DNA from: Planctomycetota bacterium
Lineage (GTDB): Bacteria; Planctomycetota; Phycisphaerae; Phycisphaerales; SM1A02
DNA: 64,000 bases
Reading direction: 5' to 3'
Assembly (NCBI GenBank): GCA_009926625.1
Contig: RFON01000008.1
Location: 1-64,000, forward strand
A program made the translations under genes and the position numbers. The notes beneath the pieces were generated by a model. It saw only the letters and a list, made by a program, of their open reading frames with translations, searched no databases and was not told the DNA's origin. Shown piece by piece: positions 8,852 through 24,710 of this stretch (the stretch's first letter is position 1; each line of letters begins with the position of its first letter).

Positions 8852-9769
8852 ATGGCGTTGAAGTTGCCAGTGTGGACGGCGAACGGGGCACTCCTCCTGT
8901 GTGCGATCTTCTGGGGAACGGGATTCGTTGCGCAGCGTCTCGCTGCGCAGCAGATGGGTGATACGCCGTTCACCTTCAATGCCGCTCGCTTCCTGATCGG
9001 CGCGCTGTTGCTGCTGCCGTTCGTCGTCACGCGCCCTGCGCTGCGCCGATGGTCCACATGGCGCGGCGGTGCGATTGCCGGCCTGGTCATGGTCATCGCT
9101 GCATCGTTGCAACAGAAGGCGATGGCCACCGTCGCGCCCGGCACCGCGGGCTTCATCACGGGGACCTATGTGGTGTGGACACCGCTGCTCGGGCTGTTGT
9201 GGGGTCTGCGCGTGTCGGCGCGATTCTGGATCGGTGCCCTGCTGTGCGTGACGGGACTCTGGGTGATGAGCATTCGCGGACAGCCGGAGATTGCGACGGG
9301 CGATCTCTACCTGATCGGTTGTGCGTGCATGTGGGCGGTCCATGTCCATGTCATCGGTTGGTGTGCGTCGCGCGAGGATGGGCTTGGCATCTCGCTCGTG
9401 CAGCTCCTCGTGACAGGCGCCCTGTCCGCGATGATTGCCGGCGCGAGCGAACCCGTCTCGGGGGAAATGCTCAGCGCGGGCACGGGACCGATCCTCTTCT
9501 CCGCGGTCTTCTCGATCGCGCTGGCGTTCACGCTGCAAGTGGTTGCGCAGTCCTCCGCGCCCGCGGCGCACGCGGCCGTGCTGCTGTCACTCGAGTCGGT
9601 GTTCGCTGAACTCTCCGGCGCGCTGTGGCTTCACGAGTCGTTCGATGGGCGGAAGTGGATCGGCGCATCGCTGATGCTCATCGGCGCGCTGGTCGCCACG
9701 GTCACTGCACCCCGCGGTACGGACCCTCCTCGCCAATCGTCTGGCCCGTCGCCACCGGGATCGGGTTGA
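8852..9769 (+). CDS. EamA/DMT-superfamily transporter
   Basis: 305 residues, about ten hydrophobic segments in two repeated halves. The N-terminal AIFWGTGFVAQ and the mid-protein Gly-rich GTAGFITGTYVVWTPLLG are typical EamA features, as is SLESVFAELSGALWL in the second half. The substrate cannot be told from sequence; the family exports amino acids, nucleotides or other metabolites. It starts 15 nt after lepB with no promoter-like element, so it is probably co-transcribed. Its last 68 nt overlap the convergent gene ending at 9702. Confidence 0.88.
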   Translation: MALKLPVWTANGALLLCAIFWGTGFVAQRLAAQQMGDTPFTFNAARFLIGALLLLPFVVTRPALRRWSTWRGGAIAGLVMVIAASLQQKAMATVAPGTAGFITGTYVVWTPLLGLLWGLRVSARFWIGALLCVTGLWVMSIRGQPEIATGDLYLIGCACMWAVHVHVIGWCASREDGLGISLVQLLVTGALSAMIAGASEPVSGEMLSAGTGPILFSAVFSIALAFTLQVVAQSSAPAAHAAVLLSLESVFAELSGALWLHESFDGRKWIGASLMLIGALVATVTAPRGTDPPRQSSGPSPPGSG

Positions 9770-10550
9770 ACGCGAATCGACCTCCAATCAACTCGGGCTC
9801 GAGCAACTTGTACGCGCCGAACCCGCTCGGCCACACCGCGATCTCCACGCGCACCTTTGTCGGATCCTTCCCCGCCAGGAAGCGAAGCATCGCTTCCTTC
9901 GCCTGCGCCGCATTGTTCACCAGTTCGCCTTGTCCCTTGGGTTCGCTGATGCGCTGCAGTCGATCCGTGAAGTTGGCGCTGCACAATCGCCCATCGGCAC
10001 ACAGCAGTTGAACGGTCTGCGGCCGCACATCGGGTCGGAGCTTGGCGAGCCGGATGAACTGCCGTGGCTCCGTCCGCCGCGCGCGCGCGAATTCCAGTTC
10101 CTTGATCTCCTGCTGCGTCGATGTCATCGTGCGTCGCACTTCCGCCAGCGCTGCCATGCTCGCGGACAGTTCCTTCCGCTGCGCGGCAAGCGCATCCCCC
10201 GCACCGCGAAGTTGCTCGGCCGTCCTCGCCAACTGCGCTTGTCCGACCCGCCACTGCTCGAGCAACCGCGGATCCCCGCGCGGCGGGAGCGCTGCGATCG
10301 CCTGGAGCACTTCCTGCAACTGCGCCTCCGACGCGCGCGCCTGCGCATCCGCCGATTCGATCGCCTCCTCCATCGACTTCGCGTCCATGACTGCATCCGA
10401 TGTCCCCGCCGATTGGGTGAAGATGACGATCATCAGCATGATGAACATCACGACACCGAGGGCGTTGCAGAGCGCATCGAGGAAGAGATCGAACGAATCC
10501 GATGATGCAGTCGTGCCGCGGCGGGAACTTCGGCGGCGGCGGCGTCTCAC
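9702..10550 (-). CDS. ExbD/TolR-like membrane protein (second of pair)
   Basis: 282 residues, last gene of the GTPase operon. The start is GTG 10550, which overlaps the TGA of the preceding gene as GTGA; the in-frame ATG at 10703 would lie far inside that gene. The N-terminus is a run of six arginines, then one membrane segment (about residues 24-46) with Asp25 in the sequence FLDALCNALGVV, the position of the proton-carrying Asp of ExbD/TolR. Coiled coil follows (about 55-140), then a C-terminal globular part with two Cys (CADGRLC). It should act with the ExbB-like channel two genes upstream. The 3' end overlaps the EamA gene. Confidence 0.75.
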   Translation of the reverse strand: MRRRRRRSSRRGTTASSDSFDLFLDALCNALGVVMFIMLMIVIFTQSAGTSDAVMDAKSMEEAIESADAQARASEAQLQEVLQAIAALPPRGDPRLLEQWRVGQAQLARTAEQLRGAGDALAAQRKELSASMAALAEVRRTMTSTQQEIKELEFARARRTEPRQFIRLAKLRPDVRPQTVQLLCADGRLCSANFTDRLQRISEPKGQGELVNNAAQAKEAMLRFLAGKDPTKVRVEIAVWPSGFGAYKLLEPELIGGRFAFNPIPVATGQTIGEEGPYRGVQ

Positions 10551-11392
10551 TTGCGACCCCAGAAATCGGTTGGCTCGAAGAACCCACCCTCCGACGCATC
10601 CCAAAGCTGGCACCCAGCTTCCCATGATGCGGAATGCAGGTTGGAGTACATGCTCAGTCCGTCCGGCACCGCATCGCTGCGGATGATGAACAGTCCGTAC
10701 CAACCATCGCTCCGCCCATCCTTCGCCGGCGGATGGTCGTCGAGCAACTGGTTCATGAGTGAAGCCCAGATGGCCGGCGCGTTGATCGACAGCGCATTCG
10801 GAACAACCATCTTGAGTGAGGGCGTTCCCCTTTCATCAAGCGTGCCCACGGCGATGCCGTCGGGCTGCACCTCGATGACCAGAGGTTGGAGCGGTTCCTG
10901 CGGGCCTGCCTGCCGCTTCACGCGCGACTGCATGTCGAGTTCGACGACTTCCTTCCGAAGTCCCTTGGCTCGCTCCGCTGCGAGTTGCAGTTCTTGTGTG
11001 ACCAGTTGCACCTCACTGCGCGCCTTCTGCAGCTTCGCGGCACCAGTCTCGAGTTGATGCTTGGCTGCGTTCAGCTTCGTCTCCTCCGACTGCTGCAGCT
11101 GCCGCAGATTCTCGAGTTGACGCCCCGTCACTCGTTCATCCGCGCTCGACTGCTGCAGCAGTTCCCGTGCCTTGGCGAGGTCCTCGGAGGCGCCCCCTGC
11201 ACGCTGCTGGGCAGCGCGCAGGCGTTCCACGAGATCGCTCGGCGGCGACGGCGTCGGACTGATCATGGGAGCGTTGCTCAGCGGATCGAGCGCGAGGATC
11301 AGGGTGATCAGGATCATGATCCCAGTGACGCAGGCCATGATGTCCTGGAACGAGAAGAACGACATGGGCGATGAGTCTTGCTTGCGTCCCAT
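10547..11392 (-). CDS. ExbD/TolR-like membrane protein (first of pair)
   Basis: 281 residues. One N-terminal membrane segment (about 15-36) with Asp17 in FSFQDIMACVTGIM, matching the ExbD/TolR/MotB-type transmembrane Asp. A long coiled coil covers roughly 50-165, followed by a mixed domain (190-281) unlike OmpA or TonB. GGAG lies 6 nt before ATG 11392. It starts 16 nt after the ExbB-like gene and overlaps the next gene by GTGA. Together the two proteins look like different stator or rod subunits around one channel. Homology is inferred from the membrane motif only. Confidence 0.78.
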   Translation of the reverse strand: MGRKQDSSPMSFFSFQDIMACVTGIMILITLILALDPLSNAPMISPTPSPPSDLVERLRAAQQRAGGASEDLAKARELLQQSSADERVTGRQLENLRQLQQSEETKLNAAKHQLETGAAKLQKARSEVQLVTQELQLAAERAKGLRKEVVELDMQSRVKRQAGPQEPLQPLVIEVQPDGIAVGTLDERGTPSLKMVVPNALSINAPAIWASLMNQLLDDHPPAKDGRSDGWYGLFIIRSDAVPDGLSMYSNLHSASWEAGCQLWDASEGGFFEPTDFWGRK

Positions 11393-11408
11393 GGCGTGCT
11401 CCGCGCGT

Positions 11409-12275
11409 CTACCAGTCCGTCAGTTTCAGCCGGCTCGTGATGTGATCCGTGCAGTACTTCGAACAGTCGTCGAGCAGATCCTCTTCAAGCTTGTAGACAT
11501 AGGTGCTGAAGAGTTGGATCCCAACCGCCGCGACCAGTGCGACAAGCGTGGTGTTGAACGCCGTGGCAAGGCCGCCGACGACGGGAGACAACTTCTCGCG
11601 GATGTTGCCCGCAGCCTCGGTGCCCCCGCCTGATGCAATGACATCCGTGAAACTTCCAATCGCAGTGCCCAAGCCGATCACCGTCCCGATGAACCCGAGG
11701 ACTGGGATGGTCCAAATGAGCGCGCGAAGGGCGGTGTAGGACGAATCGATCGTGCTGGCATCGTTGTCGGCCTGTGAATCCAGCACTGCGCCGACATCGC
11801 GCACCTCCCCGATGTTCCCGAGATTTGAGAGCGCCATCCAGACGCGATTGAAGAGGAGGAACTCACGCGGGCGCGCCACGCGCTGGGTGATCCGTTCGAG
11901 GATCCCTTCGGAAGTCCCTGGCGACAACACGAAGTCGCCCCGCGTCGGGAAGATGCCCGACAACTCGAGTGCCCGCCGCTGCACGCGCACCTTCTGCAGC
12001 TTCGTCAGCAGGATGCAGAGGCACCACCATGTGAAGAGGATGCAGAACCAGTTGGTCTGCCAGCCGCTCTCGATGATGACGCCAAAGTATGTCCCGCGGA
12101 ACGGAATGAGCGCCAGCCACGACAGCACCGTCAGCACCAGCGCGACGGCGAACCAGAATGTCCCGTGCGCACGCGTGTATCGGCCTGACGAAAATCCAAG
12201 TGCGCATTCGAGATCGCCATCTGCCGAGTCCAGCAAGGGAGTCGCCTTGGACGCATTGCTCTGGGTCGTTGTCAT
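11409..12275 (-). CDS. MotA/TolQ/ExbB-type proton channel protein
   Basis: 288 residues with four hydrophobic segments at about 40-59, 76-92, 185-209 and 233-260. The third reads VLGFIGTVIGLGTAIGSF and the fourth GLATAFNTTLVALVAA, which is the MotA/TolQ/ExbB proton-channel signature with its conserved Thr residues. The start ATG 12275 overlaps the upstream TGA as ATGA and has AAAGGAG 4 nt before it. An in-frame start at 12575 would read through the 3' end of the preceding gene. It probably forms an ion-driven motor or energy-transducing complex with the two ExbD-like proteins encoded next. Confidence 0.88.
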   Translation of the reverse strand: MTTTQSNASKATPLLDSADGDLECALGFSSGRYTRAHGTFWFAVALVLTVLSWLALIPFRGTYFGVIIESGWQTNWFCILFTWWCLCILLTKLQKVRVQRRALELSGIFPTRGDFVLSPGTSEGILERITQRVARPREFLLFNRVWMALSNLGNIGEVRDVGAVLDSQADNDASTIDSSYTALRALIWTIPVLGFIGTVIGLGTAIGSFTDVIASGGGTEAAGNIREKLSPVVGGLATAFNTTLVALVAAVGIQLFSTYVYKLEEDLLDDCSKYCTDHITSRLKLTDW

Positions 12276-15200
12276 TTTGCTCCTTTGGATGGACGGGGGA
12301 TTCGATCGGCACCGGCAAACACCAGCGATCCGGAAGGTTGCGTTCGCGGCAGTCCATCGAGCACGGGAGCGCCGTTCGCCCCGACCTTCCCGATCTGCAG
12401 CAGCGAGGCGGAAGCGTTCACCGTGAACAGTCCTTCGCCCGGCTGCAATCGAGCGCCAACGGCAAGACGCAGTGGACGGTTGGGATCGACGGTGTCGACG
12501 ATCCCAACCGGACGCAACTTGCCCTTGAGCCAGTCTCGCACCGCGTCCATCGCCAACTTCCGATCGGCGATCCACGATTCCACCGGCACATCGAGGCGCA
12601 ATGCATCGACCGCCTTGCCATGTTCCCTGCGGCTCTCAGGAACGCACGGACTCATCCAGTCCACCGCTGACAGATTGAGTTGCCCGAGAAGTTCGAGGCT
12701 GCGATCGATCTGCTGCTTCAAGGTCGGGAGCGCCACCAGCACATGCGGAAGCAGTCCCTCGATCAAGGTGGCGCGAGCGATCGGATCGACCTTGGCGTCA
12801 TCACGGATCGCCTGCACGATTTGCAGTGCGGCCATGCCATCGGTTCGCGCTGCGCGGCCGCCGATGATCTTCTCGATGCGCTCGCGAAGCGCGAACTGCG
12901 GACTCGCGCCATCGCTGGAAATCTCCTTCAGCGAAATCACCTGCGACTGTTTGTCCCCCGCCTTCCAGTTCTTCCACACCATGTAGATCGATGATTCCGT
13001 CCCTCGCGTGATCGGACGATCCTTCATGTCATAAAAGTATCGCGCGCCCGACTTCAGTGTCACTTGATTGGTCTCAAGCGGTGTCCAGGTGCGCAGCGTG
13101 TTCAGCAACCACTGCGTCCAAGCGCTGCTGTCGGCGAGCAGATCCTCGTATCGGCGGACCGCTTCCCCCACGGGGCTTGACGGGTTTGCGGCACGGTAGC
13201 GCTGCAGGATGCCGCGGATGCGCGTGCGCTCCGCCTCGGCAGCGGGAAATGGATCGGACGAGATCTGCGCGGCGGTCTCATTCCAACGAACAAGGGCGCT
13301 GGTCGGACCGCACTGCCCTGCGACTTCGGCGAACTGCGCCGCATACGGCGACTGTGGGAAGCGCGCCGCGAACTCCCCGAGGAGACGACACAAGCGATCG
13401 GGATCGTTGACCGCACCCTCGAGTGCCGCGATCTGCGCCGCCTCGTCGCGGCGCTCCTGATCCGCACGAACCATTGAATCGGCATCGGTGCGCATCGTGC
13501 CGACTCGCTTGCGCTGCGCCGTGAATGCACTGCTTGCATCGGCAGACACCCCGCTCACCGATCCAAGCCTGCCAAGCGCACCCTCGACATCCTCGAGTGC
13601 CTTGCGCGCCTGCGGAGTCGCGAGATCTTGCCGCTCGAGTTCATCGATGCGCGACGACAGGGCGCGCAGCTCCGCGATGAACGCCGCCGTCTTGCGTTCC
13701 TGCTCGCGCGACTCTGCGCCCAACTGCACCTGCCGCCAACGCGCAACACGCTCGCGCTGTTCGTCGGTACGCGCGAGTGATGCTGCTGTCTCCACCGCGG
13801 TCCGCGACACGCTCGCGTTCTCTGGGTCACCCGCAGACGCCAAGGCCTCCTCGAACTGCGCATCGCGCACGGACTCCTCATCGGATAACTGCTTGTGAAG
13901 TGCCAGCGCGGCAACGGCGCGCTCGTGTGCCATGAAACCGCGGCGCAGCGCATCGGCATCTGCGCTGAGGCGCTCGACCTCCTGTGCATCACGGCGCTCG
14001 ATTGCTCCCTCCAGTTGCGCCAAGTGCTCGTTCCGCTGCTTCTGCTCCACGAGCGCAAGCGCGCCCCACACGCCCGCGGCAAGCACGGCAGTCGCTGTTG
14101 CGCCGATGAGCGCGACCTTGAGCCGCCGCCAGTTTCGCTGCTGCAGCGAGTGGGCACGCAGTCGACTCTGCACGACATCGCGGAGCGTGGGCGGCACATC
14201 ACACCCAACGGCTTCCGCTGCGATGAGCGCATCGTTCAGTTGTGACGGAGAACAAGATGAATCCACCGCGAGCCGTTCCAGCGACTCGCGCGCCGCCCGC
14301 CGCTCCCGCTGCAACTGCTCTTCATCCTGACGGCGCCGCAGCCAATCCAGGATCGGTGCGACCGTGGCAGCGGGTCCCTCAGGGACCTGCATGCCCACTC
14401 GCTGAAGGCGTTCACACAGGCGCGACCACTGCCGCGACTGTGACTCGACCTGCTCGACCGCCTCCGCCATGTAGTGCGCGTACATCGCATCGGCTGTCGC
14501 CTTCGCATGCTGCGATGCGAAGTGACCCCACGCCTGATTCAGGCGCGCCTCCGATTCCACGACAACGCGGCGTGCAGCGTGCGGGTCGCGCCACTCCGTG
14601 CCTTGCAGATGATCAAGGATTTCATCTGCATCTGCCAACTTCCCAGCCGAAAGGGCGGCATCGAGGTCTCGCCTCAACTCGTCGATCCGCGCTGCCTCAA
14701 GTCGCTGCAATTCCTCTCCCCAGATTGCGTTTCCCTTGTCGCGCCGAGTGATGAGCCGCAGCGTTTCCATTCGGGACTCCAGCGAGGCCAAGCCGAGACA
14801 CTGCCTGCGGTAGTGGCGATGCAGCAGTTCGAAGCGCGGCTTTGATGCGCGGCGAAGCGCGCCGCGCACCTCATCCACCAGCGAGGTTGCAATCTCTGGA
14901 GCCACCTCAAGCCCGTTGCCGCGGCAGAAGGTGCGCCACTGTTCGGCGAAGAGGCTTGGCGGCCTCGCCGCCGCCGCAAGGACCGAGTTGATCTTGCTTG
15001 CAGGAGTCTGGTCTTCGAGATCTGCGCCACCGCCAAACTGAGCCCCCAACTGTGTGGTGTCGAAGTCATCGGGGGTCATCGCCGCCGAGAGTTGATCCTC
15101 CTCAGCCTGCAGATCGACTTCGGGTGAGTCAGTCGATCCGCCGCCAACGGGAAGTGCCGAGACATCCGTCTCGAACTGCAGCACATCCACCGCTTGGAGG

Positions 15201-15403
15201 AGTGGCGGCTGTGCATCAACCACGCTTCGGAGTTCCATCCAAAGCCCCCGCCGCGCCAACTCCAGTGCGTGACTCAACCGCATGCTCACCGCTCGCACTT
15301 CCTCGGCGTACTGGATCGCCACCTGTTCGTGCGCTGCCCCATCGCGACTCGTGCCCGCCAGCACCTCGCGCACTTGACCAGTGACCTGCTGCAATCGTCT
15401 CAT
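12272..15403 (-). CDS. large single-pass coiled-coil protein, function unknown
   Basis: 1043 residues, the longest gene of the GTPase operon. There is no signal peptide. About 430 helical, Arg/Glu/Gln-rich residues come first, including a low-complexity acidic linker near 90-130. A membrane segment at about 432-456 (VALIGATATAVLAAGVWGALAL) follows, then about 590 residues on the other side of the membrane. The beginning of that part is coiled coil and the end is globular (YFYDMKDRPITRGTESS near the start of the last third). Position suggests it links cytoplasmic partners (GTPase, GAP1-like) to the channel complex. It starts 3 nt after the previous stop and ends in an ATGA overlap. I do not recognise a named family. 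Confidence 0.78.
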   Translation of the reverse strand: MRRLQQVTGQVREVLAGTSRDGAAHEQVAIQYAEEVRAVSMRLSHALELARRGLWMELRSVVDAQPPLLQAVDVLQFETDVSALPVGGGSTDSPEVDLQAEEDQLSAAMTPDDFDTTQLGAQFGGGADLEDQTPASKINSVLAAAARPPSLFAEQWRTFCRGNGLEVAPEIATSLVDEVRGALRRASKPRFELLHRHYRRQCLGLASLESRMETLRLITRRDKGNAIWGEELQRLEAARIDELRRDLDAALSAGKLADADEILDHLQGTEWRDPHAARRVVVESEARLNQAWGHFASQHAKATADAMYAHYMAEAVEQVESQSRQWSRLCERLQRVGMQVPEGPAATVAPILDWLRRRQDEEQLQRERRAARESLERLAVDSSCSPSQLNDALIAAEAVGCDVPPTLRDVVQSRLRAHSLQQRNWRRLKVALIGATATAVLAAGVWGALALVEQKQRNEHLAQLEGAIERRDAQEVERLSADADALRRGFMAHERAVAALALHKQLSDEESVRDAQFEEALASAGDPENASVSRTAVETAASLARTDEQRERVARWRQVQLGAESREQERKTAAFIAELRALSSRIDELERQDLATPQARKALEDVEGALGRLGSVSGVSADASSAFTAQRKRVGTMRTDADSMVRADQERRDEAAQIAALEGAVNDPDRLCRLLGEFAARFPQSPYAAQFAEVAGQCGPTSALVRWNETAAQISSDPFPAAEAERTRIRGILQRYRAANPSSPVGEAVRRYEDLLADSSAWTQWLLNTLRTWTPLETNQVTLKSGARYFYDMKDRPITRGTESSIYMVWKNWKAGDKQSQVISLKEISSDGASPQFALRERIEKIIGGRAARTDGMAALQIVQAIRDDAKVDPIARATLIEGLLPHVLVALPTLKQQIDRSLELLGQLNLSAVDWMSPCVPESRREHGKAVDALRLDVPVESWIADRKLAMDAVRDWLKGKLRPVGIVDTVDPNRPLRLAVGARLQPGEGLFTVNASASLLQIGKVGANGAPVLDGLPRTQPSGSLVFAGADRIPRPSKGAK

Positions 15404-15406
15404 CGC

Positions 15407-16354
15407 TCAGACCTTCCCACCGCGAATGACCGCCGATGCGTAGAGCTGACCGCTGATCCGATTCTTGATCAAGAGCAACCAGCTGCCGCTGATCCCGCCG
15501 CCATGGGCAGCCGCGACCTTCGCCTCCAAAGCCTGCACCAGCTGCTCTTGCGGGTTCACTTGGAGGTCGTAGATCTTCCGCTGCGCGGCATTGAGGAATG
15601 GTTCGAGGGACTTCATCTGTCGGAGCCTCTCGCGCTGCTCCTTGAGTTCCTCGAATGGGGCATCGGCCTGCTGCAGTCGGCACACGCCTGACTCGACTGC
15701 AATGGACATCTCCACTCCACCAAGCATTCCTTCGACCTCGCCCGCTGCGCTCGCGGTCTCCACCCAAGTCGACGCTGCCTGCGGCAAGACGACGATCTCC
15801 GTGTCCGCGGGCTCGCAAGGCTTTGTCTGGATCACCACGGCAGCGCCGCCAGCCTTTCCAACACCGAGCGTCACACTTTCGAACGGTACCGGCGGCGTCA
15901 GTCGCACATTCTCGCCGCCCTTCGTTGTGTACTCGAACACGCCGCGCTTGAGCCACTCGCGGAATTCCACCAGCGCCCCTTCCACATCCTTCCTTGGAAC
16001 GGTCAGCGACGCGCAGAACACTTCCAACTCCTTCGCCTCGATGCGGAAGAACGCAATCGGCTTTCCAAGTTGTGCGGAAAACCCGCGCACTTCGATCCAA
16101 TCGCCACCCGAGTGGAACTGCAGTGCCTGCGATGACCCAGAATCAGGCAACGCTCGAATCGAGTGGATCGTCTCGGTGAGCGTGCACACACGCTCACGGC
16201 GCCCTTGAAGCTGTTCGAAGGCATCAACCGTCAGTTCAAGGCATGCCTCTGGAAGGAAGCGATATCCGAGGCGTTGCACTTCCGCCGATTGCGCCGCGCA
16301 CAGCGAGGCAACAACGCACCATCCGACCATCCCAGTCAGCACGAATGACTTCAC
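15407..16354 (-). CDS. secreted protein of the GTPase operon
   Basis: 315 residues, start GTG 16354 overlapping the preceding stop as GTGA. The N-terminus is a signal peptide (MKSFVLTGMVGWCVVASLCAA, cut before QSAE). The mature part is soluble, mixed alpha/beta, with several Cys, a short Glu/Arg coiled coil near 225-245 and a C-terminal KNRISGQLYASAVI strand region. It probably sits in the periplasm next to the large domain of the following 1043-residue protein. No family recognised. Confidence 0.75.
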   Translation of the reverse strand: MKSFVLTGMVGWCVVASLCAAQSAEVQRLGYRFLPEACLELTVDAFEQLQGRRERVCTLTETIHSIRALPDSGSSQALQFHSGGDWIEVRGFSAQLGKPIAFFRIEAKELEVFCASLTVPRKDVEGALVEFREWLKRGVFEYTTKGGENVRLTPPVPFESVTLGVGKAGGAAVVIQTKPCEPADTEIVVLPQAASTWVETASAAGEVEGMLGGVEMSIAVESGVCRLQQADAPFEELKEQRERLRQMKSLEPFLNAAQRKIYDLQVNPQEQLVQALEAKVAAAHGGGISGSWLLLIKNRISGQLYASAVIRGGKV

Positions 16355-18741
16355 TTGCGTCCCTCCCTGGTTGTCTTGAGGCGCACCACCAGTTCAAGCA
16401 CAGGGACCTCATCCTTCGGTCCGAACAAGAATGTCTTCCCCTGAACGCAATTCGCGATCTCGTCCCGTTGCTGTTCAATCCACTGCCGAACACTCTCTTG
16501 TGCATCGAGACGTTTCTGAGCCGCCGCAATCTCCTTGCTGAGCGCATTCGCTCGCTTCTTCGTGTCGGGATCCGTTGGGGTCCCAAGCATCTTCAGTGCT
16601 TGCTCGTTACTGGTGATCTCGCCCTTCACCTCCAGGATTGCTTCCTTGACTCTCGCGAGTTCGTCATCGGACAGGTTGGCTGGCCAATCGAACAACACCT
16701 CCCAGAAACGGTTGTTCGCACTGCCGCGGCTTGATTCACGAACAATGATCCCTCCTCCCTGCGCACATTTCGGAACACTGACCGACATGCCTGATGACAT
16801 GCTCGAAGAAAGGTCCGTCCATGCCCCGCCGGCAGCAGCGCACTGCCACACCCCTTGCATCGGAACCTCCCTGATGCTTTCCCCGTCGACGGTAACGCTT
16901 GTCACCTTGGAAAACCGAATCCACTTTGCCTCGCGAGCAGCAGTCTGCCCTGTCGGCCCTGTCGGCCCTGTCGGCCATGTCGCGAGGCCCATGTGCTCGA
17001 TCTCCTTCTTCAACCGTTCGAACCACCCGCCGTTCGATGCATCAATAGTGCTGGTCACTACCCAGGTCAGCTTCAGCGATCCATTCACACACTCCATCTT
17101 TGCGATGCGATCTGGGGCAGCGCCAGGGCGTGTCGAGCGCAGCGTGATCCCCTCTGCGTCGAAGCCGAATCCGCCGCGCTCCGCAGGGCCGACCCATTTC
17201 CAACTCGCGCCCTCGGGACACTCGATGAGATTGTCGAAGCCATGCCAGTGACCGAACGAGTCCTTCTGCGCAGCCGGCACGGACTTCACAATCCACCCAC
17301 CCGAGTCAGTCGGCATGCGAGGCATGCCATCCTGCATCGCGGCCTTCGGTGCTGCGGCAGACAGCATTGGCTTCAAGCGCTCGCGGCTGTTTGGCTGCGT
17401 CGGAGAGACTTGCTGCGGACTTGGCGATGGCAGCGCGGACGCCGAATCGGCCGCCGCCTGCTGCGCAGCAAGCTGATCGCGGCTTGCCCTTGCGTCCGCC
17501 AAGTCACGCTCAAGTTCGCTGATTCGATCCTTCGCAGCAAGGAGTTCGCTGCGCACTTCCGCCTCCACTTGCGTGACCCCTGGCTGGGCAACAACCTGGA
17601 TCGGCGCGGTGGTCGAATCAGGGATCTTGGCTGGGACCGCGGGCGCAGTGCTCATCGGCGCTGGGGACGCATTGCCCGCTGTCTCCCGCTGCATCATCAG
17701 CAGCAACAGCACGACACTCAGCAGGGCGAAGAATGCAGCGCACGCAGCGAGAAGCACAGGGACCTTGCGCTGATGCTCCGAACCCGACGCAGTCTCGTTG
17801 AAGGCCACACGCTGCGGCGAGCCTCGCTCGAGCGAGCGTCCGAGCACGGCATCGAGATCCGCGGGCTTGTCGGGGGACAATTCGATGCAGGCACCCGTGC
17901 CGCCTTCCGCACCAACACTCGGCTCCGCGGCTGGCACCCGCGTCGTCGGCATCGTTCCAGTCCTCGCGAAATCGATGAAACGACCCGTGCGCGTGCAGGG
18001 CGCGCCGTTGCAGAGGTCGATGCAAGTGCCACCGCCCGCCCTCGCTGCCTGCGCTGCGGGCGTTCCATCCAAACAGAATCGCCACGAACAGCGCACGCCC
18101 GCAATGGGCTCCATGAAGTACGAAGTGAAGGTCACACGCCAACGAAGTTCTGCGGGCAGCAGCAGCAGCGCCTCCGCGATCAAGGCGAGCGCATTCGTGC
18201 GCGGAGCGACGATCACCGAACAAGCCTTCGTCGGGTCCAGCATGGCGGCGTTCGCCAGCACGCCAGCCCAACCCGCATCGCCGCTTGCACGCTGCCATGC
18301 CGTGCACACTCCAGCCATCACGCGCCCCGCGCTTGGCATTCGCTTCTCATGCGGCAACTCGCGCGGCTCGCCGGTCCATGAATCAACGACGACCCCCTCC
18401 TGCTGCAGCAACCATGCGGGTCCCGCCGCACCACACTCCTCTTCGCGCAGCAAGAGATGATGTGCGAACTTGTTGCTGCGTCCCGTGTGGTCGGGCGGTG
18501 CCAAGCGAACCGCGGACAGCACATGCCTGGTGACGCCTCCACCCTCGACGATCCAATGTGAATACGCCACTGGGCATGCAGCGGGATCCGCCGCATCGTT
18601 TGGCTTTCGGTAGCCCGAGAGTGCTTCGATGCGCGGAATGAACGGCGCAGGAAACCCTTGCGTCAGGCCGACGGTGCAGATGCCGCTCGTCTGCGGACGA
18701 AGTCCACGCGGTGCCGATGTGTAAAACAGTTCGTACGCCAT
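16351..18741 (-). CDS. GAP1-like (GTPase-associated) membrane protein
   Basis: 796 residues from ATG 18741, 4 nt after the GTPase stop; an in-frame start at 18786 would lie inside the GTPase gene. The N-terminal 300 residues begin MAYELFYTSAPRGLRPQTSG and contain NKFAHHLLL and LPAELRWRVTFTSYF. This resembles the GAP1-N2 domain of GTPase-associated protein 1, a partner of TRAFAC/DO-GTPases in predicted conflict systems. A membrane segment follows at about 325-345 (LLAACAAFFALLSVVLLLLM), then coiled coil (385-424), a domain with three Gly-Pro-Thr-like triplets, and a C-terminal coiled coil (687-753). The family link is from memory of sequence style and should be confirmed by profile search. Confidence 0.75.
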   Translation of the reverse strand: MAYELFYTSAPRGLRPQTSGICTVGLTQGFPAPFIPRIEALSGYRKPNDAADPAACPVAYSHWIVEGGGVTRHVLSAVRLAPPDHTGRSNKFAHHLLLREEECGAAGPAWLLQQEGVVVDSWTGEPRELPHEKRMPSAGRVMAGVCTAWQRASGDAGWAGVLANAAMLDPTKACSVIVAPRTNALALIAEALLLLPAELRWRVTFTSYFMEPIAGVRCSWRFCLDGTPAAQAARAGGGTCIDLCNGAPCTRTGRFIDFARTGTMPTTRVPAAEPSVGAEGGTGACIELSPDKPADLDAVLGRSLERGSPQRVAFNETASGSEHQRKVPVLLAACAAFFALLSVVLLLLMMQRETAGNASPAPMSTAPAVPAKIPDSTTAPIQVVAQPGVTQVEAEVRSELLAAKDRISELERDLADARASRDQLAAQQAAADSASALPSPSPQQVSPTQPNSRERLKPMLSAAAPKAAMQDGMPRMPTDSGGWIVKSVPAAQKDSFGHWHGFDNLIECPEGASWKWVGPAERGGFGFDAEGITLRSTRPGAAPDRIAKMECVNGSLKLTWVVTSTIDASNGGWFERLKKEIEHMGLATWPTGPTGPTGQTAAREAKWIRFSKVTSVTVDGESIREVPMQGVWQCAAAGGAWTDLSSSMSSGMSVSVPKCAQGGGIIVRESSRGSANNRFWEVLFDWPANLSDDELARVKEAILEVKGEITSNEQALKMLGTPTDPDTKKRANALSKEIAAAQKRLDAQESVRQWIEQQRDEIANCVQGKTFLFGPKDEVPVLELVVRLKTTREGRK
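16950..16976. repeat. three tandem 9-bp units
   Basis: CTGTCGGCC occurs three times head to tail inside the GAP1-like gene and encodes a short collagen-like Gly-Pro-Thr run on the minus strand. Perfect copies suggest recent slippage. Confidence 0.85.
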
Positions 18742-18745
18742 GCTG

Positions 18746-20017
18746 TCAGCCCGTCGGTGCGCCGCTTGCCCGCCGCACGCCAACAATCGTGCCGAGCCTT
18801 GCGAGATCCAAGAGGAACGGCACCGTCACCCACCATGGATTGACCTTTGATGCGCGGACCCGAAGCAGCCCATTGCTCAACACTGGTGAACATCCAGTGG
18901 CGCTCACTGGCACGAACATCACTTCGCTCACCAGTCCGCGGACAGCGGAGACGAATTCCGGCACGGACTTGCGGAGCAATGCCTCGACCTCATCGCTGAC
19001 CCGCGAGATACGCTCCATATCGAGGCCGCCGAGTTTGAGCCCGCCTGGTCGGCTGTCCAGCACATACGGGTCCGACTCGATGTCCATGCCAGGCACAAGC
19101 GAACGCCACACATCGCTCTTGGTGACAACGACGACGAGTGGCTGCTGCAGCCGATCGCTCGACGACAGACTCGTCATGCGTCGGATTCGCGCAGCCATCT
19201 CCTGCACAACCGTGTCCTGCCGAAATGGACGCGACGCTTGCGTCAATTGCGGGTCACTGCTCAGCCCCTCCAACAGGCGGCGAAAACGCACATCCTGCGT
19301 TGGATCAAAGAGGAAGTACAGCATCTTTGCGCGAGCAAGGTGCTGGGTGGTCGGTGATGTCGCGAGGTCGCCCCCGGGCAGGAAGTGCTCACCCGCGTTG
19401 TCGTACAAGCACAGCACCTCGGTCCGCTCCTGCGCTTCGGCTGCGAACACGTGCGCCGCAGTCGGACGCACCGAAAAGAGATAGGGCTCGGGAAGGGTGG
19501 TGGTCTGCCCGGGTTCGATCTGCACGGTGCTGTACTGATCGCCTTCCAACTGCGTCTTGTCGAGTGCGACCAAGCCGTCTGGGTTGTCTGGGAGAAAGAG
19601 CAACTGCTCATTTCGCGTCAGCGCCTGATTCGACTGCGGATCTGCGTCCGCCAGCGTGAGTGCGAAGCACTCCTCAAGACGCTGCCGAAGCATCCAAGCG
19701 GCGGCAGTCAGGAAGAATGTCTTGCCGCTGCTCGGCGTTCCGACGATCGACAAGATCCGTGCACGATGCTCGAGCATCACCGATGGGATCTGCAAGTGGC
19801 AACGCGGACATGCCAGCCGACGACAGGTTGACCCCATGGCATCGATCCCCTCCCCAGCCGCTGTGTAACGCGATGGCACAAAGCGCAACTGGGCATCAGC
19901 CGCGAGCACCGGATCGTTGCGAAGGTCTGGGTGGCTCGAGACCCAACAGATGTCTTCTGCGGGAAACTGATGCCAACAGTGCGGGCAGCGGATCTTTCGG
20001 AGGAGTGCGCGTCGCAT
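18746..20017 (-). CDS. zinc-ribbon TRAFAC-type (DO-GTPase-like) GTPase
   Basis: 423 residues, first gene of the seven-gene operon. An N-terminal zinc ribbon (C11, C14, C70, C73 in CPHC and CPRC pairs, interrupted by about 55 residues) precedes a P-loop GTPase domain: GTPSSGKT at 93-100, G3 DNAGE at 206-210 and G4-like TKSD at 299-302. The DNAGEHF form of G3, the VTKSD and the fused zinc ribbon resemble the TRAFAC-clade GTPases of predicted NTP-dependent conflict systems (DO-GTPase2 type). No membrane segment is seen. It is directly followed by a GAP1-like gene, the usual partner of such GTPases. Biochemical activity is inferred. Confidence 0.82.
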   Translation of the reverse strand: MRRALLRKIRCPHCWHQFPAEDICWVSSHPDLRNDPVLAADAQLRFVPSRYTAAGEGIDAMGSTCRRLACPRCHLQIPSVMLEHRARILSIVGTPSSGKTFFLTAAAWMLRQRLEECFALTLADADPQSNQALTRNEQLLFLPDNPDGLVALDKTQLEGDQYSTVQIEPGQTTTLPEPYLFSVRPTAAHVFAAEAQERTEVLCLYDNAGEHFLPGGDLATSPTTQHLARAKMLYFLFDPTQDVRFRRLLEGLSSDPQLTQASRPFRQDTVVQEMAARIRRMTSLSSSDRLQQPLVVVVTKSDVWRSLVPGMDIESDPYVLDSRPGGLKLGGLDMERISRVSDEVEALLRKSVPEFVSAVRGLVSEVMFVPVSATGCSPVLSNGLLRVRASKVNPWWVTVPFLLDLARLGTIVGVRRASGAPTG

Positions 20018-20974: not shown

Positions 20975-23929
20975 TCAAGGAACAATGTCGGGAACGAATT
21001 GGTACTGCCCGCCAGACACCATGGCGAATTGGCGCAGGTAGGACTCCGACAGGAGCCCCCCAAAGTTGATCACATGAATCGTCTCGCCATTCGTGCCGAG
21101 CATCTGCCCGAGTGCTCTGAGGTTTTGCGTCATGTTCGGCACATCGCCTGCGGTCAGCAAGTAGATGGTGTTGGGCTTGAAGGTTTGCAGCGAATACCGA
21201 AGCGCGTCGAACAGGATTGGCGCACCCGCCACAAGCGCCGCATCGCCTTGTCGATCGGCCCAAGCGAACATCTGCCGCTTGTTGGCGTCATTCGCCTTGA
21301 CCGCTTGCTTGCCCGGCGGTGACTCCACCTTCGCGTCAAAGAAGACGATGGCAAACTCAAGACTCGGGTCCATGTGGTGAATCGCCTTCTTGACTTCGAG
21401 CAGCGCATGATCCATTCGACGCAGTTGCGGACCCGCAGTGCTTTTCATGCTCGCCCCAGCTTCGATCACGAAGAGGATCTTCTGGGCATCATCGGGAGCT
21501 GGAATTCCGCTGCAGTTGCACGAACCGCCTCCGCATGAACCGCTGCCACTACCGCCGCCGCCACTGCTGCTCCCACTACTGCTGCCACTACCGCCTCCAC
21601 CGCCGCCACTGCCACCGCCGCTCGCACCTGAGGACTGCTGCGCACCACCAGACTGCGCTGCGCCGCTTGGACTGCCACTTGGGCTGCCACTTGGACTGCC
21701 GCTTGGCGATCCAGTTGCACTGCCCGACTGCGACGCCCCGCCAGCCGACTGGTTTCCGCTCGATGTGCCTTGGGCTGCAGACTGCCCGCTGCCCTTCGCT
21801 CCACCTTGACTCGCGGCGCTTCCGCTCGACGCCGCGCCCTGAGTCGGTGCTTGTCCACTGCCTTGACCAGCACTTTGACCAGTCCCTTGTCCCTTCTGCC
21901 CTGCTCCCGCAGCCGCTTTCGCGCCGACTTGCGGAATCGCTCCTCCAGACCCCGGCGGCCCTCCCGTTCCCGTCGGCGAGTAGCCAGCGTTCACCAACTG
22001 CTGCGCCGCCTTGGCGATTCCTTCGATGTCGAGAAGCACTTCGACCTTTCCGCCAAACTCGCTGTCGGGTGGGAACTTCAAGCCGAAGTCGGGTGGGTTC
22101 ACCTCGAATCGCACCTCGAACCCAGCGCAATTGCCGAGCGCGGTGCGCGACTGCCCCGTTCGTGTTGCTCGCACCTTGATGGGGCGTGTCTTGCCAGCGA
22201 TCGTCAACTCCCCGTCGAGCCCAAACGAGTCCGCTGATGCCGTCGATTCAGAAAGGGATGTTGTTGTCAGCACGAACTCTGGGTTCTTGCTGGTGTTCAA
22301 GAATGCAGATCCCATGTGAACGCGGGCAAAGTCCTCGCCGTCGCAGTCCAGCGATTTCGCGCCCACGCGTACTGTCAGTTGCGGCCAGTTTCCCTGCGTC
22401 AGGACGAAGGAACCTGAAACATCGTGAAACGCCGCCCAGTACTGGCCCGCCTTCGCATGGTGCACGCCAACGAATGCAGCGCTGTACATGTCATCGATGT
22501 CGAAGTGTTGCAGTCCACTCGGCGGCGGCACATAGCGATAGCTCCCGTTGTTGTCGGCTGCGATCTGCTTGCAGATTTGCTCCCCGATCTGGTCATGGAA
22601 GCAAATCGTGTTGATCTCGACTTTCTTGGTTGGATTGCCTGCCGCAATGACCGCGCCAGAGGTCGCAGGATCGAACACTCCATCCGTCATCAGGAAGATG
22701 GCCTCCGGCTTCAACCGCCGCAGCGCAATGTCCAGCGCACCACTTGGATCCGTGCCGCCACGAGAGTTTGGTCCAAACGCGGTGCGCAGCACCCAGTCGC
22801 ATGCCTCCTTCTTCGCCCGCGGGGTGGCCTTGATCATGGAACTCCCGTTCATCGGAAAGGGCCCCGAGCTGAAGAAGATGACGAAGAACTTCGCATCATC
22901 ATCGAGCGCCTGAATGCTCATGCGCACTTCCGCAATCAACTGCGCCATCTTGTCTGGGCTCATGCTTCCCGAGAAGTCCAGCAAATAGACGATCGAGTTC
23001 GCCTTTGTCTTCACGCCGAGAAATTCTGCGCCTCCGACACTCGTCTTCTCCTTCTTTCGAGGACCGCGTGAACTCGTCAGCGCCGGTCGATCGGTCGGCT
23101 CGGGCGGAATCTCCCCTGGCGGCGTCAACCCCAGACGAGGGCGCGTGGCGCGACTGACCTGATTCGGATCGCCGGAGCGCCTCTCGCCAGCCACGACTTC
23201 CTTGGGCACCCTTCCCTCCACCGCAAGAACGATCCGCATGACACCTGTTCCCGCTGCATCACCGAGATCGGCAGCGAGCCCCGCAGTGGTGAGATCGACT
23301 TCGACTTCGCCCACCAGCCCGACGCGCGCGTTCTCCTCGCCCATGAATCGGATGGTCATCGGCACCGAGATCTGCTTGCCGCCGATGGAGAGCGTCGTCG
23401 ACTTGACCAAGAATGACCCATCCTTCGCGGCTGCCTCCGACTTCCCCTCGATGCGGATGAACGGGAATGCCGCCGCATTCAGCGAGCTCGCATCGAGCAG
23501 CGCCTCCTCGAGTTCCTTGTTGTTGCAGTCGATGGTCTTGACGCGGATGGATGCGTCGATGGTGACGCCGAGTTTCTCATCAAACTCGAATGCGCCTTCC
23601 ACGCTGTGAAAGGTCCCCCAGAACTGCGAACACGATGAACGATCCGCGCGGAACAGCGCCATCGAGTATCGATCATCGATCAGGAATGCGCCCGCCGCAG
23701 TTGCCGATGGAGTGGGCTCCGCTCGGATCTGCTCGGCTGTTGTCTGCATCGCGGCAGGCTGTGCCGGAGCCTTTGAGTTCTGCGCATCCTGGGCATTCTG
23801 TGCATCCTGTGCGGTGCAGACAACGCACAGCGCCGCACAAGGCAACCAAGCTGCCAAGAGTCCCCGCACTATGCGCCGAGGGCTTCGACTTCCAGTTGAC
23901 TGCTCGATGTTCGATGACACATCGAACAT
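20975..23929 (-). CDS. secreted YceI-VWA-YceI-VWA multidomain protein
   Basis: 984 residues from ATG 23929. Signal peptide (LLAAWLPCAALCVVCTA, cut before QDAQ). Domain order: YceI-like barrel (about 80-245), von Willebrand A with intact MIDAS DFSGS near 314-318 and a TDG-type loop (LMTDGVF), second YceI-like barrel (about 493-646), low-complexity Gly/Ser/Gln/Pro linker (650-815) ending in CGGGSCNC, and a second VWA whose MIDAS is degenerate (EAGAS). YceI domains bind long isoprenoids or amphiphiles; VWA domains bind proteins through a metal. Start is uncertain: ATG 23929 lies inside a strong hairpin, and GTG 23869 would give a compact signal peptide. Downstream of a single-domain YceI gene. 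Confidence 0.85.
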   Translation of the reverse strand: MFDVSSNIEQSTGSRSPRRIVRGLLAAWLPCAALCVVCTAQDAQNAQDAQNSKAPAQPAAMQTTAEQIRAEPTPSATAAGAFLIDDRYSMALFRADRSSCSQFWGTFHSVEGAFEFDEKLGVTIDASIRVKTIDCNNKELEEALLDASSLNAAAFPFIRIEGKSEAAAKDGSFLVKSTTLSIGGKQISVPMTIRFMGEENARVGLVGEVEVDLTTAGLAADLGDAAGTGVMRIVLAVEGRVPKEVVAGERRSGDPNQVSRATRPRLGLTPPGEIPPEPTDRPALTSSRGPRKKEKTSVGGAEFLGVKTKANSIVYLLDFSGSMSPDKMAQLIAEVRMSIQALDDDAKFFVIFFSSGPFPMNGSSMIKATPRAKKEACDWVLRTAFGPNSRGGTDPSGALDIALRRLKPEAIFLMTDGVFDPATSGAVIAAGNPTKKVEINTICFHDQIGEQICKQIAADNNGSYRYVPPPSGLQHFDIDDMYSAAFVGVHHAKAGQYWAAFHDVSGSFVLTQGNWPQLTVRVGAKSLDCDGEDFARVHMGSAFLNTSKNPEFVLTTTSLSESTASADSFGLDGELTIAGKTRPIKVRATRTGQSRTALGNCAGFEVRFEVNPPDFGLKFPPDSEFGGKVEVLLDIEGIAKAAQQLVNAGYSPTGTGGPPGSGGAIPQVGAKAAAGAGQKGQGTGQSAGQGSGQAPTQGAASSGSAASQGGAKGSGQSAAQGTSSGNQSAGGASQSGSATGSPSGSPSGSPSGSPSGAAQSGGAQQSSGASGGGSGGGGGGSGSSSGSSSGGGGSGSGSCGGGSCNCSGIPAPDDAQKILFVIEAGASMKSTAGPQLRRMDHALLEVKKAIHHMDPSLEFAIVFFDAKVESPPGKQAVKANDANKRQMFAWADRQGDAALVAGAPILFDALRYSLQTFKPNTIYLLTAGDVPNMTQNLRALGQMLGTNGETIHVINFGGLLSESYLRQFAMVSGGQYQFVPDIVP
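21666..21713. repeat. 12-bp tandem repeat in VWA-protein linker
   Basis: Four near-identical 12-bp units (CTTGGACTGCCA type) encode repeated Gly-Ser-Pro-Ser on the minus strand in the linker of the YceI/VWA protein. Confidence 0.8.
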
Positions 23930-23939
23930 CGAACAGTCA
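23897..23939. repeat. 20-bp inverted repeat, 3-nt loop
   Basis: Arms 23897-23916 and 23920-23939 are complementary at 19 of 20 positions around ACA. The repeat begins 6 nt past the stop of the YceI gene and contains the ATG at 23929. There is no T-run on either side, so it is not a standard intrinsic terminator. It may separate or tune expression of the two genes. Confidence 0.9.
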
Positions 23940-23945
23940 CCGCAC

Positions 23946-24584
23946 TCAGTTGGATGCAGCAATCGCTTCAACTGCGATGATGATCCTCACCTGATCGCCG
24001 ATCGATCCTTGCTCGACTCCGTATGTCATGCCGTAGTCCGATCGCTTGATGTCGAAGGTGCCTTCAAATCCAGCGCGCGTCTTGCCTCCCATCGTCGCGA
24101 TCTTCGACGCATCAATCGTGACGGTGACCTCCTTCGTGACTCCGTGAATGGAAAGTTTGCCGCCGACCTCGAATCGCCCACCACCGATCGACTTGGCATT
24201 TGTCGACTTGAACGACATCTTCGGAAACTCGACTGCATTGAAGAAGTCAGGACTCTTGAGATGCGCGTTCAACTTGTCGTTGCCACTGTCGACGGTACCC
24301 ACATCAACCGACACATCGAAGGAAAGCATCTTGCCTTCCTCGTACTTCACTTCGCCAGAGACATCGTTGAACCGTCCCCAAAACTGCCCCGCACCCATGT
24401 GCTGCACGCGAAACAGTGCCATCGAGTGCACATCATCGATAACGAAGACCGATGCCGCGGCAGACGCGGACGACTTCGGCTCGGCTGCCTTCTGTGGGGC
24501 ATTGAGAGCAAGTGCTGCCGCGAGTCCGATGACCGCGAAGAGCGGAAGTGCGAAGCGTGAAAGGCGGCACAGTGGGCAGGACAT
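23946..24584 (-). CDS. YceI family protein
   Basis: 212 residues from ATG 24584, which has AAGAGGAG 7 nt upstream; a longer frame to 24623 has no such site. Signal peptide or N-terminal anchor (FALPLFAVIGLAAALAL) followed by a YceI lipocalin-like barrel: VDVGTVDSGNDKLNAHLKSPDFF and SDYGMTYGV-type segments are classic. YceI proteins bind polyprenyl lipids in the periplasm. It is followed by the multidomain YceI/VWA gene, separated by the long hairpin. Confidence 0.9.
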   Translation of the reverse strand: MSCPLCRLSRFALPLFAVIGLAAALALNAPQKAAEPKSSASAAASVFVIDDVHSMALFRVQHMGAGQFWGRFNDVSGEVKYEEGKMLSFDVSVDVGTVDSGNDKLNAHLKSPDFFNAVEFPKMSFKSTNAKSIGGGRFEVGGKLSIHGVTKEVTVTIDASKIATMGGKTRAGFEGTFDIKRSDYGMTYGVEQGSIGDQVRIIIAVEAIAASN

Positions 24585-24710
24585 GAAGGCTCTCCTCTTT
24601 GTGGTGCTTGGTTGATGACACAACTCGATCTACGCGCACCCTATCAGTAGGCGCGCAGGATTTCGCAATCCGCAGTGGAAGGCGACGGCGGATAGAATGT
24701 CCTATAACTG

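What the first reader, a model, noticed from the sequence alone, without database searches (positions are those of the whole stretch)
9702..20017. Seven-gene operon coupling a TRAFAC-type GTPase and a GAP1-like protein to an ExbB/ExbD-type ion motor
Seen: seven minus-strand genes with gaps of 16 nt or less and four ATGA/GTGA overlaps encode a zinc-ribbon GTPase, a GAP1-N2-like membrane protein, a secreted protein, a 1043-residue single-pass protein, a MotA/TolQ/ExbB-like channel and two ExbD/TolR-like proteins. Known: DO-GTPase and GAP1 pairs occur in predicted NTP-dependent conflict systems, and ion-driven MotAB-like motors act in the Zorya antiphage system. Inference: a GTPase switch here may gate a proton-driven envelope complex, perhaps for defence or envelope surveillance. 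I know of no described system with this full set.
Basis: partly seen in the sequence, partly recalled or inferred. Interest (0 to 1): 0.85.

Follow-up and report, generated by a model that had tools for sequence, protein, structure and literature searches.

The report
GTPase-coupled ion-driven envelope motor operon
A conserved set of bacterial genes joins a molecular on/off switch (a GTPase with its partner protein) to what looks like an ion-driven motor in the cell membrane, a pairing that I found in many planctomycete and verrucomicrobial genomes but in no paper that I could search.

Summary
The window carries a seven-gene minus-strand operon: DO-GTPase2 with zinc ribbons, GAP1-N2/GAP1-M membrane protein, secreted protein, 1043-aa single-pass protein ("long"), MotA/TolQ/ExbB channel, two ExbD/TolR-like axle proteins. 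The six-gene core recurs in the same order in Planctomycetota, Verrucomicrobiota/Lentisphaerota and Desulfamplus: of 45 named channel loci with at least 8.5 kb upstream, 43 have the GTPase, 43 GAP1, 42 long. These channels form one supported group; a sister motor lacks the switch.

The paper that defined DO-GTPase/GAP1 systems does not contain MotA, ExbB or TolQ in its main text. I read this as a new variant of that kind whose output is an ion-driven envelope motor with two different axle subunits. Both axle types keep the membrane aspartate (80/80, 73/73); one axle of the sister motor mostly has serine.

Defence is not shown: few flanking proteins match defence models, and the locus is syntenic in close relatives. 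But two cyanobacterial plasmid relatives of the sister motor lie beside type III-B CRISPR and nucleotidyltransferase/SLATT genes. Gating, its direction and the function are inference.

The parts
18746..20017 (-). DO-GTPase2 with N-terminal CPxC zinc-ribbon pairs, 423 aa; P-loop GTPSSGKT, G3 DNAGE, G4 TKSD
   Evidence: PF19993 33.6 bits. In 56 near-full-length rows incl. the window: GxxxxGK[ST]-type P-loop 56, D[NT][AS]GE 56, KxDx[WF] 54
16351..18741 (-). GAP1: GAP1-N2 and GAP1-M domains, one likely TM helix at 329-347, then an extracytoplasmic part without a known domain, 796 aa
   Evidence: PF20013 84.5 bits, PF20014 59.1 bits; of 29 rows 23 have one hydrophobic segment and 6 (window included) two, 28 of the 29 with one between residues 320 and 370, the other at 300
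15407..16354 (-). probably secreted protein (signal-peptide-like N-terminus, by eye), 315 aa, seen only in the near clade
   Evidence: no Pfam match; 8 loci incl. the window
12272..15403 (-). 'long' protein, 1043 aa: helical cytoplasmic N-terminal part, one TM (430-448), helical then alpha/beta extracytoplasmic part
   Evidence: no credible Pfam match; one hydrophobic segment in 56 of 58 rows; AlphaFold model mean pLDDT 83.5, no clear PDB relative
11409..12275 (-). MotA/TolQ/ExbB-family channel, 288 aa
   Evidence: PF01618 34.6 bits; T198 and T243 in 85 of 85 rows; 4 hydrophobic segments in 58 of 85 rows, 3 in 24 (the window itself: 3)
10547..11392 (-). axle protein 1 (ExbD/TolR-like), 281 aa: TM helix with Asp17, coiled-coil-like middle, C-terminal domain
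   Evidence: D17 80/80; homologous to axle 2, hhalign 99.5%; no ExbD Pfam match
9702..10550 (-). axle protein 2 (ExbD/TolR-like), 282 aa: TM helix with Asp25, long helices, C-terminal alpha/beta domain
   Evidence: D25, N29, G32 73/73; AlphaFold model mean pLDDT 84.7; best VIA-align row is the ExbD periplasmic domain, Z 6.6, rmsd 3.2, 86 aligned, tied with unrelated rows down to Z 5.6
20975..23971 (-). vWA-YceI protein upstream, separated from the GTPase by a plus-strand ORF (possible accessory only; some relatives have a vWA gene after axle 2)
   Evidence: PF13768, PF04264; vWA genes in relatives

Best explanation
A trans-envelope machine in which a DO-GTPase/GAP1 switch is coupled to an ion-driven MotA/ExbB-type motor. 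Shown: six proteins encoded together in a fixed order, inherited together, with GTPase motifs kept and a TM aspartate in both axle types. Inferred: the channel forms a pentamer around an axle made of one copy each of axle 1 and axle 2; ion flow past the two Asp residues turns or rocks the axle and moves its helical stalks and C-terminal domains in the periplasm. GAP1 and long, each with a cytoplasmic part, one TM and a large extracytoplasmic part, tie the motor to the envelope and to the GTPase. GTP binding, sensed through GAP1, engages or releases the motor, so that force is applied to the envelope only on demand, for envelope maintenance, surface movement or extrusion of surface material. 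vWA, GYF and secreted proteins would be lineage-specific load or target adaptors.
For: Fixed-order core: GTPase 43, GAP1 43, long 42 of 45 named loci with enough upstream sequence; axle 1 59 and axle 2 59 of 62 with enough downstream; complete 34 of 38. Draws not chosen by the GTPase: phylum of Victivallis, class-1 channel in 15 of 240 genomes, 12 complete, 2 contig-cut, 1 reordered but with GTPase; window's phylum, 12 of 294, 9 complete, 1 split between contigs, 2 without GTPase/GAP1. Distances of the five families tested (not GAP1) correlate over 37 loci, r 0.70-0.86, permutation maximum 0.23. Class-1 channels and the two GTPase-less ones lie on one side of a branch with SH-aLRT 100 or 99; the two GTPase-less ones nest inside, behind a branch with 96. 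GTPase motifs, axle Asp and channel Thr, TM pattern. 17 of 19 genomes of the genus, own included, keep the channel. Clusters that match the window's downstream neighbours (EamA, S26, PSP1, Der) recur in 11-13 loci, window included.
Against: No contact between switch and motor is shown and no complex could be modelled. The axle proteins miss PF02472 and hhalign to ExbD gives 7% and 0.6%. Of 12 evaluable GAP1 loci outside the window in its phylum, 4 have GTPase-GAP1-long but no motor in 3-9 kb (L027, L032, L036, L037) and no class-1 channel elsewhere in the genome (some of these genomes are incomplete), so the switch can exist without this motor. Two class-1 motors lack GTPase and GAP1 (L179, L180), as do L108 and L116 among the named loci. 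In five sister loci of one genus only an axle 1 with Ser was found and no axle 2 (L182, L183, L184, L186, L188), which does not fit a fixed heterodimer in the sister motor. The role (envelope work) is inferred from anatomy and stable inheritance.
Confidence: 0.48

Rival explanations
1. An anti-phage or other conflict system: the motor senses or acts on the envelope after attack and the GTPase/GAP1 switch sets a threshold, as in Zorya or as proposed for DO-GTPase systems.
For: DO-GTPase/GAP1 systems are predicted conflict systems (passages of PMC7159879). Two cyanobacterial plasmid relatives of the sister motor lie beside a type III-B CRISPR operon with a CARF-HEPN protein (viperin a few kb on), and beside nucleotidyltransferase, SLATT, helicase and N6-methylase genes; their channels group with the sister clade, SH-aLRT 92. 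Sparse in the phylum: 12 of 294 genomes.
Against: The window's seven proteins match no PADLOC model well; the channel matches ZorA2 at E 0.07 and the axles have only weak coiled-coil matches (LmuB, LeoBC, JetC). Of 102 flanking proteins of complete loci, the listed PADLOC families have one or two members each at 1e-10 (RT-Protease XI 2, MkoA 2, PD-T4-6, mad6, mad3 and C3a189 1; 25 of 41 families shown; no background rate measured). Stable position in close relatives and 17 of 19 genomes of the genus. GTPase not found in phage or plasmid collections at E 1e-5. No nuclease or other known effector domain in the operon.
Confidence: 0.28
2. Reverse coupling: the motor is the sensor of envelope state and the GTPase/GAP1 pair is the output, switching a cytoplasmic response.
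For: In Zorya the motor is proposed to sense envelope damage and signal inward (passages of PMC11890865). GAP1 and long cross the membrane with large parts on either side. GTPases of some relatives carry a kinase domain, a GYF domain or an FHA-like stretch below cut-off.
Against: No dedicated cytoplasmic effector was recognised in the operon. The switch without an adjacent motor also exists.
Confidence: 0.25
3. A TonB-like energiser for uptake or export across the outer membrane, with vWA or GYF proteins as substrate adaptors.
For: ExbB/ExbD-type parts; one GTPase-less relative lies near histidine kinase, YfiR-like and TonB-receptor genes (L180).
Against: The genome has four stronger PF01618 places and six PF02472 matches elsewhere. 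No TonB or TonB receptor in the operon or among the 25 of 115 most frequent Pfam families of the flanks.
Confidence: 0.1
4. Two unrelated modules that happen to share an operon here.
For: Each half also exists alone.
Against: 34 of 38 complete core sets across several phyla, one clade, correlated distances.
Confidence: 0.03

Closest known systems
DO-GTPase/GAP1-N2 systems (Kaur et al. 2020, PMC7159879; passages seen)
   Same: DO-GTPase with zinc ribbons and the conserved Glu (DNAGE); GAP1-N2 plus GAP1-M next to it; TM after GAP1; GYF proteins in planctomycete relatives; vWA proteins in some loci
   Different: The themes described are tubulin, HSP70, kinase, and in planctomycetes FGS or GYF; MotA, ExbB, TolQ and 'proton channel' do not occur in the main text. 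No FNIII repeat protein recognised here
AglRQS gliding motor with MglA, Myxococcus (PMC3169522; passages seen)
   Same: One TolQ-like channel plus two different TolR-like proteins; a small GTPase (MglA) is placed in the same machinery
   Different: AglQ and AglS match PF02472, these axles do not; the M1 cluster is given as aglRQS alone, without the GTPase; MglA belongs to another GTPase family (recalled)
Zorya ZorAB (PMC11890865; passages seen)
   Same: MotA-family channel with single-TM partner; sister channels match ZorA profiles (best E 1e-12; 1.7e-8)
   Different: No peptidoglycan-binding domain found in the axles, a channel of only 288 aa without a long tail, no ZorC/D/E-type gene; two axle types
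Tol-Pal and Ton motors (TolQR, ExbBD)
   Same: Channel family PF01618; single-TM partner with Asp; TolQ is the only PDB sequence match of the channel profile at E 0.1 or better, E 0.004
   Different: Axles far diverged, with long helical stalks; a GTPase switch in the operon

Membership tests
DO-GTPase/GAP1-N2 system | GTPase of the DO-GTPase family with conserved Glu in Walker B and zinc ribbons | tested here: met
   PF19993 33.6 bits, over the cut-off; DNAGE and CPxC pairs. In a whole-genome search the same place scores 21.9 bits, under the cut-off
DO-GTPase/GAP1-N2 system | GAP1-N2 and GAP1-M protein beside the GTPase | tested here: met
   PF20013, PF20014 over cut-off; gene order in relatives
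DO-GTPase/GAP1-N2 system | FNIII-repeat component | tested here: inconclusive
   No FNIII match among the operon proteins; the repeats are described as rapidly evolving and could be missed
MotA/TolQ/ExbB channel | PF01618 domain | tested here: met
   34.6 bits, cut-off 22.9
MotA/TolQ/ExbB channel | 5:2 assembly and ion conduction | not testable with these tools
   No complex modelling or experiment
ExbD/TolR | PF02472 match | tested here: not met
   None for either axle at E 1; none on the window's contig in a whole-genome search at E 0.001
ExbD/TolR | Asp at the start of the single TM helix | tested here: met
   80/80 and 73/73
ExbD/TolR | Periplasmic ExbD/TolR fold | tested here: inconclusive
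   8pek Z 6.6, unrelated rows within 1 of it; no Foldseek match below E 0.001
Zorya | ZorA and ZorB family proteins | tested here: not met
   ZorA2 only at E 0.07 (PADLOC) and 0.15 (NCBIfam); no ZorB match
Zorya | Helicase/nuclease effector (ZorC/D/E) | tested here: not met
   No such match in the seven proteins
AglRQS-MglA gliding machinery | Glt envelope genes and surface motility | not tested
   No Glt search made; motility not testable

The most novel reading that the evidence does not exclude
A nucleotide-switched ion motor: a MotA-type stator with a built-in GTPase clutch and a heterodimeric axle. It shares ancestry with a motor without the switch, defence-linked in the two cyanobacterial cases, whose axle 1 mostly has Ser in place of Asp; the GTPase-coupled branch has an acid in both axle subunits, so the switch and a two-acid axle go together.
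Probability: 0.27. Interest if true: 0.9.

Novelty: new variant of a known kind. Interest (0 to 1): 0.72.

Why it matters
What DO-GTPase/GAP1 switches act on is an open question; here the likely output is an ion motor whose activity can be measured. It would be a dedicated GTP control on a MotA/ExbB-type motor, in bacteria (Planctomycetota, Verrucomicrobiota) with unusual envelopes. The natural set of axle types, with Asp in both or Ser in one, offers a direct test of how many acids such a motor needs.

Tried and rejected
Chance operon: rejected. Zorya membership: rejected on PADLOC, NCBIfam and gene content. Defence island: PADLOC batch scan of 102 flanking proteins, taken from 146 picked at 47 complete loci in locus order up to a residue cap, near-copies dropped by hand: three models with two members, the other families listed with one, 25 of 41 families shown. 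A second batch of 59 of 85 genes around 12 sister loci, motor genes included: ZorA-type matches, which I take to be the channels themselves, and one RtcR-like protein. No control rate was measured for either. Profiles of axle 2, long and GAP1 against PDB sequences gave what looks like coiled-coil and low-complexity noise. Foldseek and VIA-align of long gave helical matches without a specific relative; this excludes no family. PF19993 finds few of these GTPases in whole genomes, so my own profiles were used for neighbourhoods. Six PMC searches gave no paper that, by its listing, describes the full set; supplements and subscription journals were not seen.

Known weaknesses: rows kept as near full length, of rows found: GTPase 56 of 62, GAP1 29 of 65, long 58 of 67, channel 85 of 86, axle 1 80 of 81, axle 2 73 of 80. 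The channel motif [VIL]W[ATL][IL]PVLGF is biased by the search pattern, which kept the best 80 of 233. Four seeds of the long profile (L026, L028, L031, L035) were chosen by position; a profile without them still finds all four (166-500 bits) and long in 57 of 80 named loci. Alignment A2 wrongly held a GYF/vWA protein (L026:18831-19901) and was not used for conclusions; the axles of that genome lie further down. Near-copies such as L077/L080 and L091/L117 were not removed from the counts. Gene starts in relatives come from my own simple gene finder. Trees are quick searches with some long branches. The window's phylum is inferred from its named relatives.
Full report
What is there. The minus-strand genes at 9702-20017 form a tight operon with three 4-nt overlaps and gaps of at most 16 nt. 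Order of transcription: GTPase, GAP1, secreted protein, long, channel, axle 1, axle 2. Pfam supports DO-GTPase2 (33.6 bits, cut-off 27), GAP1-N2 (84.5), GAP1-M (59.1) and MotA_ExbB (34.6, cut-off 22.9); the secreted protein, long and both axles match nothing credible. In a whole-genome search PF19993 scores only 21.9 bits at this place, below its cut-off, so the GTPase is a divergent member. Its motifs are kept: P-loop and D[NT][AS]GE in 56 of 56 near-full-length rows, KxDx[WF] in 54 of 56.

Recurrence. GAP1-M occurs in 16 of 294 genomes of the phylum. I fetched 15 GAP1 loci of 14 other genomes (the below-cut-off G011 was left out): 8 have the channel beside GTPase-GAP1-long (L024, L025, L026, L028, L029, L031, L034, L035), 4 have no motor in view (L027, L032, L036, L037) and 3 are cut by contig ends (L030, L033, L038). 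A channel-based scan of the named-genome collection gave 233 relatives, of which the best 80 were kept: mostly Planctomycetota and Verrucomicrobiota/Lentisphaerota, including Victivallis vadensis DSM 14823, plus two Desulfamplus MAGs and one MAG labelled Syntrophus. With profiles of the six proteins, 45 loci with at least 8.5 kb upstream have GTPase in 43, GAP1 in 43 and long in 42; 62 loci with at least 3 kb downstream have axle 1 in 59 and axle 2 in 59 on the same strand (in L062 both axles are present but inverted; L061 and L107 show none); 38 loci with both flanks are complete in 34.

Draws independent of the GTPase. In the phylum of V. vadensis 15 of 240 genomes carry a channel of this class (281 bits or more; next 216); L058 and 11 of 14 fetched loci are complete, 2 are cut by contig ends, 1 has the GTPase behind axle 2 and no GAP1 or long in view. 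In the window's phylum 12 of 294 genomes carry it (348 bits or more; next 240): 9 complete, G102 split between contigs, G171 and G056 without GTPase or GAP1 (G181's axles). In the phylum of Desulfamplus only the seed of 148 genomes has it. In the window's genus 17 of 19 genomes, own included, keep the channel.

Sister motor. Channels of about 110-250 bits, many about 500 aa, come with axle-1-like and axle-2-like proteins, or only one of them, and without GTPase or GAP1 in the stretches fetched. In a tree of 93 rows all 18 such rows fall on the other side of a branch with SH-aLRT 100 from the 73 class-1 rows and the 2 GTPase-less ones; without three very long rows and with two cyanobacterial channels added, that branch has 99, the GTPase-less rows nest inside the class-1 rows behind a branch with 96, the cyanobacterial ones join 13 sister rows (92), and L192 and L195 lie between. 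Many class-1 rows have cut flanks, so not each of them was tested for the GTPase. I read this as one coupling event with a later loss. Distances among 37 loci correlate between the five families tested (r 0.70-0.86; permutation maximum 0.23); shared descent of the organisms contributes to this.

The axle. The two axle families are homologous to each other (hhalign 99.5%) but not demonstrably to ExbD (7% and 0.6%). In coupled motors Asp17 of axle 1 (80/80) and Asp25 of axle 2 (73/73) are invariant, as are Thr198 and Thr243 of the channel (85/85). At 18 sister loci the motif search found Ser in axle 1 (FPF[LMI]S) at 14, Asp at 2 (L195, L198, whose proteins score alike to both axle profiles), no motif at L192 (Asp by eye) and no axle match at L196; both cyanobacterial copies have Ser. 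Five of the 14 come from one genus and show no axle 2 nearby. Where axle 2 was read out with its start it has Asp (L181, L189, L191, L193; Anabaena; Microcystis). This asymmetry suggests, but does not show, a heterodimeric axle, and the five loci with axle 1 alone speak against a fixed one in the sister motor. The AlphaFold model of axle 2 (mean pLDDT 84.7) has a TM helix, long helices and an alpha/beta domain whose best VIA-align row is the ExbD periplasmic domain (Z 6.6, rmsd 3.2, 86 aligned), tied with unrelated rows (5.9 and below); Foldseek alone gave nothing at E 0.001.

Transducers. GAP1 has a hydrophobic segment near residue 340 and long one near residue 350 (430 in the window), with large parts on either side. 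The long model (mean pLDDT 83.5) is helical up to about residue 775 and alpha/beta at the end; no specific relative was found. A cluster found in 47 of 96 sets examined (95 loci and the window, many of them cut) contains GYF-type proteins, mostly between long and channel; Pfam confirms GYF_2 in L053 and L024 and is below cut-off in L044. Genes after axle 2 include vWA proteins in several loci; 9 of 102 flanking proteins match VWA_3. The window itself has neither between its core genes. Kaur et al. mention GYF proteins for planctomycete systems, so this set may be the uncharted remainder of something they touched; MotA, ExbB, TolQ and 'proton channel' do not occur in their main text (figures and supplements not seen).

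Function. Against a mobile defence role: mostly housekeeping neighbours (iPGM, Der-like, PSP1, signal peptidase, ParB, RNase J-like), neighbours shared by 11-13 loci, few PADLOC matches among flanks, and no GTPase relative in phage or plasmid collections. For a defence link at the level of the motor type: the Anabaena and Microcystis plasmid copies (E 2.5e-48 and 3.5e-47 to the channel profile) lie in defence neighbourhoods, n = 2; among genes around 12 planctomycete sister loci no such neighbourhood showed. I therefore favour an on-demand envelope motor, with defence as the chief rival.

Literature (passages only). AglRQS, with one TolQ-like and two TolR-like proteins, and MglA in the same gliding machinery: PMC3169522, PMC13104615. 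Zorya: PMC11890865. MotAB and its non-flagellar relatives: PMC12505986, where the word GTPase does not occur. A DO-GTPase beside psp operons: PMC11237479.

Noticed in passing
L224:5929-8508 (Anabaena cylindrica pANACY.03) and L226:6923-9523 (Microcystis p1): Three-gene sister-type motor directly after a type III-B CRISPR operon with a CARF-HEPN protein (viperin downstream), and between nucleotidyltransferase/SLATT/helicase and DUF559 genes. Axle 1 lacks the TM Asp.
   Followed up: partly
L181-L191, L193, L194, L197: Channel-axle units without the GTPase in planctomycetes in which axle 1 has Ser for the TM Asp; five of one genus show no axle 2 nearby.
   Followed up: partly
L035:9513-16676 (same family as the window): Two GTPase-GAP1 pairs with a trypsin-like gene between them, before long and the motor.
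   Followed up: no
L038:1312-3825, L107:2906-4774, L058:1359-3260: GTPase joined to a protein kinase domain (L038), to GYF and a below-cut-off FHA match (L107), or to GYF (L058).
   Followed up: no
L180:7403-15765 (G056): Class-1 motor without GTPase, near histidine kinase, YfiR-like and TonB-receptor genes.
   Followed up: no
window 20975-24623: vWA protein with a YceI domain inside the same chain, next to a separate YceI gene.
   Followed up: no
window 20113-20958: Plus-strand 281-aa ORF of no Pfam family, with relatives beside the operon in L039 and L043.
   Followed up: no
L057:10868-12709, L098:4873-6711: GYF domain fused to a squalene-cyclase-like region, encoded between channel and axles.
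   Followed up: no
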